From NCBI GenBank assembly GCA_945949735.1, contig CAMFFO010000002.1, positions 27,851-91,850 of the forward strand: a stretch of DNA of 64,000 nucleotides, written 5' to 3'. The stretch's first letter is position 1. Each line of letters begins with the position of its first letter. Below, one piece after another: positions 3,219-62,568 of the stretch. The position numbers were made by a program, and so were the translations under genes. Source of the DNA: an uncultured Clostridia bacterium. Its GTDB lineage: Bacteria > Bacillota > Clostridia > Oscillospirales > Oscillospiraceae. A model generated the notes under the pieces. That model did not search any database and was not told where the DNA came from. It saw only the letters and a list, made by a program, of their open reading frames with translations.

Positions 3219-3396
3219 AAAATTGTTGTTTACAGTTTTCAAGCACCTTACGTTGCTACCGTAGGGGCGGATATTATCCGCCCGAAACGTTCCGGTTTTT
3301 GAGCATTTCCGGTGAATATGCGTGCTATCAATGCGGTAAGGTTGCGGGCGGATAATATCCGCCCCTACGGTGATAGTGCTGTAAACAACAATTTAC
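3219..3396 (+). repeat. Inverted-repeat element, type A (GGATATTATCC core), copy 1
   Basis: About 178 bp. Ends AAATTGTTGTTTACAG and CTGTAAACAACAATTT are perfect inverse copies. Inside, GTAGGGGCGGATATTATCC on the left and its inverse on the right make a second inverted pair. The full length could fold into one long hairpin. Near-identical copies occur at 6170, 16850 (inverted), 33278 and 50778 (inverted). Confidence 0.9.
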
Positions 3397-6169: not shown

Positions 6170-6347
6170 GTAAATTGTTGTTTACAGTTTTCAAGCACCT
6201 TACGTTGCTACCGTAGGGGCGGATATTATCCGCCCGAAACGTTCCGGTTTTTGAGCATTTCCGGTGAATATGCGTGCTATCAATGCGGTAAGGTTGCGGG
6301 CGGATAATATCCGCCCCTACGGTGATAGTGCTGTAAACAACAATTTA
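6170..6347 (+). repeat. Inverted-repeat element, type A, copy 2
   Basis: Essentially identical to the copy at 3219, in the same orientation and with complete ends. It lies 23 bp after nfo and just before the promoter of the FHA-SEDS gene. Confidence 0.9.
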
Positions 6348-16849: not shown

Positions 16850-17026
16850 TAAATTGTTGTTTACAGCACTATCACAGTAGGGGCGGATATTATCCGCCCG
16901 CAACCTTACAGCATTGATAGTACGCACATTCACCGGAAATGCTCAAAAACCGGAACGTTTCGGGCGGATAATATCCGCCCCTACGGTAGCAACGTAAGGT
17001 GCTTGAAAACTGTAAACAACAATTTT
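16850..17026 (-). repeat. Inverted-repeat element, type A, copy 3 (inverted)
   Basis: Same sequence as the 3219 copy but in opposite orientation, with both ends complete (TAAATTGTTGTTTACAG and its inverse). Confidence 0.9.
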
Positions 17027-33277: not shown

Positions 33278-33453
33278 AAATTGCTGTTTACAGTTTTCAA
33301 GCACCTTACGTTGCTAACGTAGGGGCGGATATTATCCGCCCGAAACGTTCCGTTTTTTGAGCATTTCCGGTGAATATGCGTGCTATCAATGCGGTAAGGT
33401 TGCGGGCGGATAATATCCGCCCCTACGGTGATAGTGCTGTAAACAACAATTTC
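33278..33453 (+). repeat. Inverted-repeat element, type A, copy 4
   Basis: Same as the 3219 copy, with small changes (TTGCTGTTTACAG left end; GCTAACG for GCTACCG). Confidence 0.9.
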
Positions 33454-34945: not shown

Positions 34946-35082
34946 CCGTAGGGGCGGCTATTAGCCGCCAGAAACGTTCCGGTTTTTGAGCATTTTCGGA
35001 TAAAACGGACATTTCCGTAGTCGTTAGGTTGCGGGCGGCTAATAGCCGCCCCTACGATAACAAATTACCAAACACCAATTTA
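34946..35082. repeat. Inverted-repeat element, type A' (GGCTATTAGCC core), left end missing
   Basis: Core GTAGGGGCGGCTATTAGCCG and its inverse, with the same GAAACGTTCCGGTTTTTGAGCA centre as type A. The right end is CAAACACCAATTTA; the expected left terminus is absent. It sits in the 276 bp gap upstream of fumC. Confidence 0.85.
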
Positions 35083-37750: not shown

Positions 37751-38145
37751 TAAATTGTTATTTAGAATTGACAATTGGCAATTTACAATTGACAATTAAG
37801 GGATCCCTTCGGGATGAATTAAAATAAATGTGTGCGTATCGGGTTCCTGCCGTAGGGGCGGCTATTAGCCGCCTGTGTTGCTTTCGCTTGCGAAAGCAAC
37901 ACATTCTATCGAAAAGCTCAAAAAACGCAGCGTTTCGGGCGGCTAATAGCCGCCCCTACGGTGGCATCGAGACATATTTAAAATCTGCAAACACCAATTT
38001 TCCAGCTTGCTGACTAAAGGCGATAAGCACAGATATTTATGCGCGAAACGTGCTGGTGTATTTCGAAATCGTCCCGTAGGGACACAATAATTGTCAACTG
38101 TCAATTGTCAATTGTCAATTCGGCGAAGCAGTTCAAACACCAATT
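37751..38145. repeat. Composite repeat cluster: type A' element interrupted and flanked by AATTGTCAATTG units
   Basis: Left end TAAATTGTTATTTA at 37751, then short units of AATTGACAATTG, a type A' core at 37850-37975 (GGGGCGGCTATTAGCCGCC and inverse, here with CTTTCGCTTGCGAAAG in the middle), a right end CAAACACCAATTTT at 37989-38002, then units of CAATTGTCAATTGTCAATT at 38095-38118 and a further CAAACACCAATTTG end at 38133-38146. It looks like at least two insertions, one into the other. No gene seen. Confidence 0.75.
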
Positions 38146-50777: not shown

Positions 50778-50954
50778 TAAACTGCTGCTTACAGTACTAT
50801 CACCGTAGGGGCGGATATTATCCGCCCGCACCCTTGCCGCATTGATAGCACGCATATTCACCGGAAATGCTCAAAAACCGGAACGTTTCGGGCGGATAAT
50901 ATCCGCCCCTACGGTAGCAACGTAAGGTGCTTGAAAACTGTAAACAACAATTTA
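50778..50954 (-). repeat. Inverted-repeat element, type A, copy 5 (inverted)
   Basis: Left terminus is AAACTGCTGCTTACAG, the right end standard. Core as in the 3219 copy, reversed. With the previous element it fills the 720 bp gap before the cat pseudogene; nothing else seen there. Confidence 0.9.
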
Positions 50955-58943: not shown

Positions 58944-59020
58944 GCGGCGGTAGCTCAGTTGGATAGAGTGACTGACTACGAATCAGTAGGTCGGGGGTTC
59001 GAGTCCCTTCCGGCGTACCA
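58944..59020 (+). tRNA. tRNA-Arg (anticodon ACG), acceptor stem with one G-G mismatch
   Basis: 77 bases. The D arm, anticodon arm (ACTGA-CTACGAA-TCAGT, anticodon ACG) and T arm all form, and CCA is encoded. The acceptor 5' strand GCGGCGG pairs with 3' CCGGCGT except at the fourth pair, which is G-G. A second 3' end downstream (59158-59178) ending TCGCCGT-A-CCA would pair with the 5' strand fully, suggesting that the present 3' end was swapped in by recombination. Confidence 0.9.
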
Positions 59021-59076: not shown

Positions 59077-59310
59077 TTGGGACTCGAACCATAAAATGCA
59101 AATGTCCGGTGGACATTTGCTCGGCGGCGGCTCGACGACGCCGACACCATAATGTTGCGAGTCCCTTTCGCCGTACCAAAAACGGGTTATCCCATCCGGG
59201 ATGACCCGTTTTTGATTTGACGGGTGGGACTCGAAAGGGCGGCCCGGCCGCAGGCCGGGTAAAAACAGTCCGGTGGACTGTTTTTAGATAAGTGGGAGAG
59301 TCCCTCCGGT
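59077..59310. other. Scar region with tRNA-Arg 3'-end copies and GTCCGGTGGAC palindromes
   Basis: CGAGTCCCTTTCGCCGTACC at 59157-59176 is a second tRNA 3' end (19 of 21 matching the real one, CCA included). Inverted pieces of the T arm (GGGACTCGAA) occur at 59079-59088 and 59226-59235. Palindromes around TCCGGTGGA are at 59099-59121 and 59265-59288. A terminator (59178-59213) follows the displaced 3' end. No ORF with a ribosome site. This looks like remains of integration at the tRNA. Confidence 0.6.
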
Positions 59311-59613: not shown

Positions 59614-59868
59614 TTAGCTTATCTGCGGATTCGTGTGTTTCTTTTCACGGAGGTTGGTATAGATTGCCATGGTGGTGTTTATGTCCGCGTGGCCGAGGAG
59701 TTTCTTTGCGGTATGCACATCAACGTCCGCCTCAAACAGGATGGTGGCGCAGCCGTGCCGTAGAGAATGGGCTGTCAGGTTTGGTTTGAAGTTGTGGACG
59801 ACGTAGGTCTTTCCTTGTTTGCTGATCTTTGTTTCCTGGGTATCCTCGACGAAGCCCATATCCTTAAC
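59614..59868 (-). pseudogene. C-terminal fragment of a tyrosine recombinase (integrase)
   Basis: About 84 residues of the catalytic domain: LTAHSLRHGCATILFEADVD (with the HxLRH box), AKKLLGHADINTTMAIYTNL (the second His and the nucleophile Tyr), then a short tail. The N-terminal DNA-binding part and first catalytic Arg are lost: the frame meets a TGA exactly where a type A' repeat begins at 59867. Probably the integrase of the element that once used the tRNA-Arg site. Not functional. Confidence 0.8.
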
Positions 59869-60076
59869 TCAGCAAACCGACAAATTGGTGTTTGTCGAGA
59901 TGCCACCGTAGGGGCGGCTATTAGCCGCCCGCTTTTGTTTCGTCAACGAAAGTGCTTCCGTTTATCGGAAACGCTCAGAAACCTGAACGTTTCCGGGCGG
60001 CTAATAGCCGCCCCTACGGTGGCAATGCAGCGTGTTTGGAAATCTACAAACACCAATTTGTCAGGCTGCTGACTTA
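59867..60076. repeat. Inverted-repeat element, type A', inserted in the integrase gene
   Basis: Outer arms TTAACTCAGCAAACCGACAA and an imperfect inverse ending GCTGACTTAG; inner ends AAATTGGTGTTTGTCG and CAAACACCAATTTGTC; core GGGGCGGCTATTAGCCGCC and inverse. It truncates the integrase, which shows that this family inserts as a unit. Confidence 0.85.
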
Positions 60077-60106: not shown

Positions 60107-60210
60107 TTATTTTTTACCGTCTAATATTTCGAGAATTGCAGTATTACTGAACGCTATATTCATAACGTCCCGAAGGGACTCCTTAACTGTCCACTGTCCT
60201 GCGTCTATGA
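60107..60210 (-). pseudogene. C-terminal remnant of an unidentified minus-strand gene
   Basis: In one frame the minus strand reads LIDAGQWTVKESLRDVMNIA, then FSNTAILEILDGKK and TAA (60107-60109). It is AT-rich, unlike its neighbours, has no start and ends where the polyvalent protein fragment begins. Probably a decayed mobile-element gene; family not recognised. Confidence 0.35.
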
Positions 60211-60219
60211 GAGCGGAAA

Positions 60220-62568
60220 GTGGGCAAATCTTTACGACTGGGGCGAAAAAAGGCGCCCAACGGATACTATGATCCGGCGGACGGGAGCATCCATATTGAC
60301 CTGAACGCAGGGCAGTCCGGCAAGGGCACCATGCTGTTCACCGTGGCCCATGAGCTGGCCCATTTTATCAAGGACTGGTCAAGCGTCAAATATATGGCTC
60401 TTGCGGATGCGCTGGTGAAGCAGTACCAGAAGCAGGGCGTAACTGTTTCGGAGCTGGTGGACAATCAGATCGAAAAGGCAAAGCTGAACGGGCGGGAAAT
60501 GAGCAGACTGGAAGCGTTTGACGAGATGGTGGCGGATTCCATGGAGAGTATGCTCACCGATGAAAACGCGGCGGCTTTCCTGGAACGGCTTGCCCAGCGG
60601 GACAGGGGGCTTAAAGAGAAGATTGTTTCCTGGCTGAAGGAGCTGGCCGCGAAGCTGAAAAACGCGCTGAGCGCCTACAAGGACGTGAAGCCAGATTCCC
60701 AGGAGGGGAAGATGGTGGCCCAGATGGAGGATTTCCGAAAGGAGATCATGGGCATCTATACCTCCGCGCTGGTGGATGCCGGGGAGAATTTCAGGGAGAA
60801 TGGAGGTACTTTAACATCAGATGGTGATTATCTCTATTCGGAAAGAGTTACGGATAAGGATACGCTTGATTTCCTTAACAGTCAGGAAACTGTAACCACA
60901 TACAAAACCATGCAGATCGTTGACGGGAAGCTGTACCCTCCTATGGCATCCAGAATTGGAGGGAAGCATGAGGACTACAGCGTTCTTGGAGAATGGGAAC
61001 AGGCTACAGAACACCCCGAACTGATAAAGGAAAACGGTAAATTCAAACTCGATAAGGGAAAAGGACAGGGCAGCATTGAAGCCGCGTACAATCCTTATAT
61101 GCATTCGTCGAATCTGGTTATCAACGATCAGTTTTCAGGAGCATATGCTCGGGACAATCTTGTTACTGTAGAATGTGAAGTACCTGTCAGTGAACTTACC
61201 AGCGGATACAGAGCACAGTACGCGAAGGATTCTGTCGGTTGGCACGCATGGCACACAGGAACCGTAGCTGGCGCGATTCGGAAAGCTACCGGGGTGGAAA
61301 GACAGGTTTTGCTTTCCAGGTGGATTAAGCCTGTCCGAATCCTATCGGATTCCGAAGTTGCGGCTATGTATAAGGATTTGCTTGATGGAACAGATATCTC
61401 TGTTCCTGACAATGTGGTAACTCCTTCGCTCCTTTCCGAATTGAAAAAGGCTGGTGTGAAAATCAATGAAAGCGGAAGAGTAAAGCATTCATACCGGGAA
61501 GGTGGAGAGAAGTATTCTGATCGATACATTTCTTCAGATGTTGACACAAATGTGCTTTCCCTTGTCGAGCGCGTAAAATCTGGTCACTATTCCGATAATG
61601 AAAAGGTATTTTTTAGCACTGTCCCTGATAAAATAGCATCGACGATTGAGAAAATTACAGGTATTGATGTTAAAGGTTTTCGTGTCGCTATAGAAGCTCG
61701 GCAAATATACCACATTCTAAATGACCATGGCCCAAAAGGCACTTCAGACCATTCGATGGCCGATCCAAATGATATTGCTCGGATAAGATACACTTTAGAT
61801 GACCCTGACGATATTCGTGAATCAGGTACAACAAAGGCATACACCCATTTCAAAAATGGAAAAAACAGGCTTGCGCCAACTGTTCTTTATGAAAAAAGCA
61901 TTGGAGATAAGTCCTATTATGTTGTGCAAGCGGTACCGGATACGAAAGCCAAAATACTTTATATTGTGTCAGCATTTATTGGGAAAAGCGGATACAAAAA
62001 GGAAGTCCAGCAGCTCATCAATGCCAATGGCTCTGATGCAACGGCTAAAACCGGTTCTGCTGAAACTTCCAATTACAGTATACGCGACCCCAATTCTGTT
62101 GTCAAGCAGAAATTCTCCGACCGTGACCCGACAGCGGAGGCTACGCGGGCGGCGTTGGAGAAGGAGAATGGGAAACTGCGGGAGGATGTTTCCAGGCTCA
62201 GGGAGCTGCTGAGGCTGCAGGGGAAGGTGACCGGCGGGACGGTGATGAAGCCCTCCAGCGTGGAGGCGGCGGCAAGATGGCTGAACAAGTACGCCGGGGC
62301 AAAGGCGGATGTGAAGGAGCTCAGCCGGATTCTGACGGAGTTTTACCAGTTCATCGCCACTGACAAGGACTACAGTTGGGAGGATGTCCACGATCGGGCT
62401 ATGGTCATTGCCAAATACCTTAAGGACAATGTACAGATCAAGCCCCAGATGAGCGACTACGCCAGGGACGTGCTGCGGGATATCCGGGGGATCAAGATCA
62501 CCCTGGACGAGAGCCAGCGGGCCAAGGCAGAATACCAATACGGATGTGTTGATGCAATCAAGAGTTGA
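60220..62568 (+). pseudogene. Fragment of a phage/ICE polyvalent protein: zincin domain, AT-rich effector cassette with a PBECR-like nuclease, helical tail
   Basis: A 782-residue open frame beginning inside a domain (GTG, no ribosome site) and ending in an abrupt, unnatural tail. Residues 12-110 are a zincin-like peptidase (H44-E-L-A-H48, with E102 in AFDEMVADS). Residues 206-400 are an unrecognised domain with WHAWHTGTVAGA. Residues 445-600 resemble a barnase-EndoU-ColicinE5/D-RelE-type (PBECR) nuclease, with H498 and H503 in IYHILNDHG. Residues 640-770 are coiled coil plus a helical domain typical of large polyvalent proteins. The motif YS-x-R (or FSDR) recurs at 206, 432, 619 and 632, at domain borders. 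Bases 60,805-62,110 are visibly AT-richer than both flanks, as if the middle cassette had been exchanged. A type A' repeat lies upstream and a type B fragment downstream. Confidence 0.7.

What the first reader, a model, noticed from the sequence alone, without database searches (positions are those of the whole stretch)
60220..62568. Polyvalent phage/ICE protein with an exchanged, AT-rich toxin-like cassette
The frame starts with a HELAH zincin domain and ends with the helical tail of large polyvalent proteins, both GC-rich like the host. Bases about 60,805-62,110 are clearly AT-richer and encode an unrecognised WHAWHTGT domain plus a PBECR-like nuclease domain. The composition change coincides with YSER at residue 206 and FSDR at 632. 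This is what cassette swapping of effector domains in a fixed delivery scaffold would leave behind.
Basis: partly seen in the sequence, partly recalled or inferred. Interest (0 to 1): 0.7.

Follow-up and report, generated by a model that had tools for sequence, protein, structure and literature searches.

The report
Swappable effector slot in phage protein
The window holds a broken-off piece of a giant phage protein, of the kind thought to be injected into bacteria, whose middle section is a replaceable slot: close relatives carry the same flanking parts at both ends but different enzyme domains between them, and the joins fall at or beside a short repeated motif.

Summary
The ORF at 60220-62568 has a GC-rich start (zincin plus helices) and tail, and an AT-rich middle (GC3 0.74 / 0.44-0.33 / 0.81). 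The composition breaks fitted by segmentation (60787 and 62116) match the DNA-homology breaks against a congeneric genome (60806|60807 and 62112|62113). Both flanks are 87-91% identical there, but the middle is replaced by MuF_C plus ART domains.

In two intact relatives, 3146- and 3657-codon frames beside portal, major head and internal virion protein genes of P22-like phages, this slot is the main non-homologous block in about 15 kb of 79-88% identical DNA. Homology stops within the motif [FY]S[IL]R and resumes at [FL]SDRD. So 'same scaffold, different middle' is shown directly.

Corrections: the carrier is a phage, not an ICE. The window copy is a truncated relic beside a tRNA-Arg with an integrase fragment. 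The middle holds two units of separate history: a conserved domain unmatched in Pfam, NCBIfam and PHROGs but found across several phyla, and a PBECR3 nuclease-like domain. Domain mosaicism in polyvalent proteins is known; the internal, motif-bounded slot and the new domain are the new parts. Cleavage at the motif by the zincin is inferred.

The parts
60220..62568 (+). Open reading frame, 782 aa: fragment of a giant phage polyvalent protein, truncated at both ends
   Evidence: relatives are 3000-4800-codon frames in which this stretch starts near residue 1000
60247..60806 (+). Scaffold: partial zincin metallopeptidase (HELAH 60349-60363; downstream FDEMVADS helix) plus helical region. The N-terminal helix and first strand seen in relatives are missing
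   Evidence: alignment; L045 homologue hits MPTase-PolyVal PF18818 at 23.5 bits, below the 27.5 cut-off. GC3 0.74
60806..60807 (.). Left exchange breakpoint: the end of homology to G303 (L042), after about 67 identical bases
60835..60846 (+). Junction motif YSER (residues 206-209)
60835..61509 (+). WHAWHTGT ('M1') domain, unnamed family
   Evidence: 26 members aligned, 41-62% identity, several phyla and IMG/VR contigs; AF2 pLDDT 88.7, pTM 0.85; no PDB fold or sequence match
61513..61524 (+). Junction motif YSDR (residues 432-435) between M1 and PBECR3
   Evidence: the same EGG-x-KYSD linker in phage L159 joins scaffold to PBECR3
61624..61992 (+). PBECR3 nuclease-like domain (residues 469-591)
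   Evidence: Pfam PF18812, E 2.2e-12; conserved H-I-x-x-x-HG core; 63% aa identity to phage contig L159
62074..62088 (+). Junction motif YSIRD (residues 619-623)
62113..62127 (+). Junction motif FSDRD (residues 632-636) and right exchange breakpoint 62112|62113
62113..62544 (+). Coiled/helical tail of the scaffold, truncated
   Evidence: PHROG 22978; 90.6% DNA identity to L059 over 62113-62250; GC3 0.81
60107..60217 (-). 3' end of another reading frame (SALIDAGQWTVKESLRDVMNIAFSNTAILEILDGKK*), cut about 3 bases before the polyvalent fragment begins: deletion or assembly junction
59614..59859 (-). C-terminal fragment of a tyrosine recombinase
   Evidence: Pfam PF00589, E 1.4e-13; homologous to the 464-aa integrase reading frame beside the same tRNA in G304
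58944..59020 (+). tRNA-Arg(ACG), likely integration site; its 3' end is repeated at 59158-59179 (91%)
   Evidence: G304 has a 46-bp copy of this 3' end about 7 kb away

Best explanation
The ORF is a relic of the giant polyvalent protein of a P22-like temperate phage of this bacterial genus. Shown: the protein contains one exchange slot between a zincin-plus-helix block and a coiled tail block. Different lineages hold different effector domains in that slot, alone or in series. In the sampled genus members these are AT-richer than the scaffold, and most are joined by linkers with the motif [YFL]S-x-R, often followed by D or E. In this lineage the slot holds a previously unnamed domain (M1, 'WHAWHTGT') followed by a PBECR3 nuclease-like domain; phage L159 has the same PBECR3 without M1, so M1 was gained here or lost there as a separate unit. 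Inferred: the intact protein is packaged and ejected with phage DNA, as its place beside portal, major head and internal virion protein genes suggests. In the recipient cell the resident zincin, or another protease, cuts near the linker motif and releases the slot domains, which act early against host defences or host RNA. Swapping of domains with other phages, with joins at or near the linkers, keeps the frame and both flanks intact. Later the prophage decayed, leaving this open fragment near tRNA-Arg.
For: Exchange: DNA homology to G303 stops at 60806 and restarts at 62113, where MuF_C plus ART lies instead. Intact genes G307 and G427 are 87.6% and 79.1% identical on either side of the slot and differ by 574 bp (MuF_C) versus 2080 bp (PBECR5 and unassigned); protein homology ends within the FSIR/YSLR motif and resumes one residue before [LF]SDRD. 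Composition. Motif: 17 hits in 3277 slot residues versus 2 in 8198 outside (Fisher p 5e-8), none inside a mapped domain; also seen before M1 in 12 of 24 proteins of other bacteria and phages (background 5%). Carrier phage: portal, major head and internal virion protein upstream; 98% identical portal in G427. M1 gain or loss. Coding selection: dN/dS 0.22 (scaffold) and 0.02 (tail) against G303. Relic.
Against: No experiment shows packaging, injection, cleavage or nuclease activity. The motif regex was chosen after seeing the first examples, and proteins with other zincin clades lack it. L042 has no motif in its slot. The left DNA break against G303 is about 9 codons before YSER, not at it. The PBECR3 model found no significant PDB match. 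The window genome is a fragmented assembly (289 contigs, 81.5% complete) and the ORF lies 1.4 kb from the contig end, so the outer junctions could be assembly errors.
Confidence: 0.85

Rival explanations
1. Assembly chimera: an AT-rich sequence from another genome was joined into the ORF, and there is no biological exchange.
For: The genome is a fragmented assembly, the ORF is near a contig end, and dispersed repeats flank it.
Against: The frame stays open through all joins. The same slot, with AT-rich contents, recurs in independent assemblies and in IMG/VR phage contigs. Breaks fall at or near motifs. PBECR3 follows the same scaffold directly in L159.
Confidence: 0.04
2. The AT-rich middle is native: composition differs because these domains are under other codon or amino-acid constraints, and relatives merely diverged or lost domains.
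For: Low GC3 is found in the slot of most sampled genus relatives, whatever the domain.
Against: Different Pfam families occupy one position between 79-88% identical flanks. M1 was found in 1 of 136 genus genomes but in several other phyla. The M1-like domain in L026 has host-like GC3 0.72, so the domain itself does not force AT-richness.
Confidence: 0.06
3. Orphan cassette: the scattered truncated copies (window, L042, L059, L062) are not simply decay but stored donor cassettes flanked by scaffold homology, as orphan toxin cassettes of CDI or Rhs loci are.
For: Several genus genomes hold isolated fragments that keep part of the N-flank, a slot domain and/or part of the tail, with no phage genes seen nearby. 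L059 and L062 end at about the same tail position (window residue about 676). The window frame is open, with low dN/dS.
Against: The other fragment ends differ. L042 has a stop codon after MuF_C. An integrase fragment and a repeated tRNA end next to the window copy point to ordinary prophage decay.
Confidence: 0.12

Closest known systems
Polyvalent proteins of phages and conjugative elements (Iyer et al. 2017, PMC5512222)
   Same: Giant multidomain proteins with zincin MPTase, PBECR, MuF_C, ART and LPD domains, mosaic between relatives (Helicobacter jhp1044), proposed to be auto-processed by the zincin
   Different: That paper's main text, searched for the words linker, cleavage, processing, motif and cassette, shows no linker motif at domain joins and no DNA-level exchange slot between conserved flanks in the passages read; M1 is not in Pfam
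Polymorphic toxins (CDI, Rhs, MuF-fused; PMC3482391, PMC5576092)
   Same: Constant delivery part with exchangeable effector domains from a shared pool; peptidase domains thought to release the effector
   Different: There the C-terminal tip is swapped together with an immunity gene. Here the slot is internal, both flanks are kept in frame, domains can sit in series, and no immunity gene can travel with the slot
PBECR3 (Pfam PF18812)
   Same: Profile match above cut-off; conserved H-I-x-x-x-HG core
   Different: Activity unknown; the nearest relative found is in an IMG/VR phage contig with 63% aa identity
DUF7666 / phage rIIB-associated domains (BFVD structure hits to M1)
   Same: Weak overall shape similarity of the M1 model to several phage proteins
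   Different: Hits named DUF7666 or rIIB have E of 0.06 or worse; only unnamed phage proteins reach E below 0.001. Not a membership claim

Membership tests
Polyvalent protein (Iyer 2017) | Two or more domains of disparate activity in one polypeptide | tested here: met
   Zincin, M1 and PBECR3 in one frame
Polyvalent protein (Iyer 2017) | Encoded by a phage or conjugative element, next to virion or transfer genes | tested here: met
   Met for intact relatives (portal, major head, internal virion protein); the window copy itself has only an integrase fragment nearby
Polyvalent protein (Iyer 2017) | Packaged and injected | not testable with these tools
   Needs virion proteomics
PBECR3 nuclease PF18812 | Profile match above curated cut-off | tested here: met
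   47.3 bits against cut-off 30
PBECR3 nuclease PF18812 | Conserved core residues kept | tested here: met
   I499, H503 and G504 invariant in 14 sequences
PBECR3 nuclease PF18812 | BECR fold by structure comparison | tested here: inconclusive
   Confident model (pLDDT 85.5) but best PDB hits have E > 0.1; RelE- and HigB-type toxins appear only at E about 1
Zincin MPTase-PolyVal PF18818 | HEXXH helix plus downstream acidic ligand helix | tested here: met
   HELAH and FDEMVADS aligned in relatives
Zincin MPTase-PolyVal PF18818 | Complete domain and profile match | tested here: not met
   No Pfam hit for the window copy; N-terminal helix and first strand missing. Relative L045 hits below cut-off
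Polymorphic toxin | Variable domain at the C-terminus followed by an immunity gene | tested here: not met
   Slot is internal; the conserved tail continues for more than 1500 aa in intact relatives

The most novel reading that the evidence does not exclude
The [YFL]S-x-R-[D/E] linkers are both the cutting sites of the phage's own embedded zincin and the usual joins of recombination, so that phages exchange ready-to-process polyprotein units inside an ejected giant protein: an internal counterpart of the polymorphic-toxin cassette, used without immunity genes.
Probability: 0.25. Interest if true: 0.75.

Novelty: new variant of a known kind. Interest (0 to 1): 0.58.

Why it matters
It turns the known mosaicism of polyvalent phage proteins into something concrete and testable: one defined slot, exact borders, a short border motif, a set of alternative contents in near-identical phages, and a new conserved domain found across phyla. 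It predicts where the protein should be cut, and it gives a way to harvest unknown phage effectors by reading whatever lies between the two border motifs.

Tried and rejected
Close-relative pattern scans with the whole ORF found nothing in genome or viral collections; whole-genome searches and alignment-based scans worked. No plasmid hit, so an ICE or plasmid origin was not supported. The motif as a universal feature of polyvalent proteins was rejected: many genus and family members with other zincin clades lack it. Fold searches of M1 and PBECR3 against PDB gave no significant match, so no catalytic assignment is made for M1; an ADP-ribosyltransferase-like reading of M1 was considered from local sequence pattern only and not claimed. 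Pfam scan of all 26 M1 members gave only chance-level hits. Laying the whole genome in the Python box was not available.

Full report
WHAT IS THERE. The ORF at 60220-62568 is real as described. HELAH is at residues 44-48, YSER at 206 and FSDR at 632. GC3 is 0.743 in the N-part, 0.437 in the WHAWHTGT part, 0.328 in the PBECR part and 0.806 in the tail, against 0.74-0.81 in neighbouring genes; a two-breakpoint fit gives 60787 and 62116 with a likelihood ratio far above codon shuffles. Pfam recognises only PBECR3. The tail belongs to PHROG 22978, a 3513-position phage family. NCBIfam adds nothing.

SAME SCAFFOLD, DIFFERENT MIDDLE. Genome searches in the family and genus found the N-scaffold in 11 of 101 genus genomes, the tail in 6 of 136, and the WHAWHTGT part only in the window's own genome. 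In genome G303, window 60411-60806 is 86.6% identical at DNA level, with no difference in about the last 67 bases, and then homology stops dead (L042). On a second contig, homology resumes at 62113 (L059, 90.6% to 62250). Between them G303 has MuF_C and ART-PolyVal. These DNA breaks are independent of composition and agree with it to within 20 bases. Purifying selection is visible on both flanks (dN/dS 0.22 and 0.02).

INTACT GENES SHOW THE SLOT DIRECTLY. G307 (L044, 3146 codons) and G427 (L060, 3657 codons) share about 15 kb at 87.6% and 79.1% DNA identity. The main non-homologous block is the slot: 574 bp in L044 (MuF_C) and 2080 bp in L060 (an unassigned domain, PBECR5 and more). Protein homology ends at residue 1203/1204, inside or at the end of FSIR/YSLR, and resumes at 1393/1896, one residue before LSDRD/FSDRD. 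GC3 falls from about 0.75 to 0.4-0.5 there; the only other dip is at the very N-terminus. Other contents at the same place: MuF_C plus ART plus an unassigned domain (G350), LPD3-like below cut-off (G422), PBECR3 (G374). Phage contigs L159-L171 carry the scaffold too, with PBECR3, ART, or ART plus LPD3 downstream in those that Pfam could read.

THE TWO UNITS OF THE WINDOW HAVE SEPARATE HISTORIES. Phage contig L159 has scaffold, then the same PBECR3 unit (63% identity over 211 residues, including the EGG-x-KYSD linker) with no WHAWHTGT domain, then about 550 further residues, then the tail beginning LSERD. Which of the two states is older is not shown. The WHAWHTGT domain ('M1') is found in 28 genome loci and 5 IMG/VR contigs, from Oscillospiraceae, Bacilli, Bacteroidales, Verrucomicrobia and Victivallales, at about 40-61% identity for full-length matches, often inside reading frames of 3000-4200 codons with different neighbours. 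Its AlphaFold model is confident but matches nothing solved; a few unnamed phage proteins match in BFVD.

THE JUNCTION MOTIF. In the window clade [YFL]S-x-R occurs 17 times in 3277 slot residues and twice in 8198 residues outside, never inside a mapped domain. In proteins of other bacteria and phages, [YF]S plus one residue of a set precedes M1 in 12 of 24 cases against 5% background. The regex was formed after seeing examples, so the p-values are optimistic; the boundary coincidence in L044/L060 does not depend on the regex. The motif is not universal: polyvalent proteins with other zincin clades lack it.

CARRIER. Upstream of L044 lie a P22-like portal, a major head protein and an internal virion protein; G427 has a 98% identical portal. 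So the giant protein is encoded among virion genes of a P22-like phage. The window genome itself has two more distant portals on other contigs.

THE WINDOW COPY IS A RELIC. It starts after the zincin's first helix and strand, about 3 bases from the cut end of a minus-strand reading frame, and ends where relatives continue for more than 1500 residues. Nearby are an 80-aa integrase fragment and tRNA-Arg with a repeat of its 3' end. In G304 the same mutY-tRNA-Arg site has a 464-aa integrase-like reading frame beside it and a 46-bp copy of the tRNA end 7 kb away.

MECHANISM. Shown: exchange of internal domains between conserved flanks, with joins at or near linkers. From the literature: polyvalent proteins are mosaic and their zincins are proposed processing peptidases (PMC5512222). 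Inferred: packaging, ejection, cleavage at the motif, and RNase or other effector action in the recipient cell.

Noticed in passing
L042, L048, L059, L061, L062, L063: Isolated truncated polyvalent-gene fragments lie among ordinary chromosomal genes in several genus genomes; L059 and L062 end at about the same tail position (window residue about 676), which may be chance or a hotspot.
   Followed up: partly
window 59901-60024 and copies near 3253-3372, 6205-6324, 16934-16992, 33318-33430, 34946-35056, 37850-37968, 50801-50920: Dispersed palindromic repeat (MITE- or REP-like, arms about 30 bp, GGGGCGGCTATTAGCCGCCC core); one copy sits just upstream of the integrase fragment.
   Followed up: no
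L156 4989-12663: In G304 the tRNA-Arg 3' end is repeated about 7 kb away; a reading frame beginning MKTYTIIGGVNGVGKSSFTG (zeta-toxin-like by eye) occurs in two near-identical copies, one on each side of the second repeat.
   Followed up: no
L026 (G238) residues 1075-1191: A distant M1-like stretch (YKVFYAKGGQLYPPM) follows the same scaffold and a YSLRE motif in a 3350-codon frame; unlike most other slots its GC3 is host-like (0.72).
   Followed up: partly
L167: This phage polyvalent frame carries two copies of the zincin scaffold (residues 1032-1213 and 1906-2093), with a PBECR3 domain between them.
   Followed up: no
G000:C4 and G000:C68: The window's own genome carries two further P22-like portal genes (46-48% identity), one with an internal stop codon.
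   Followed up: partly
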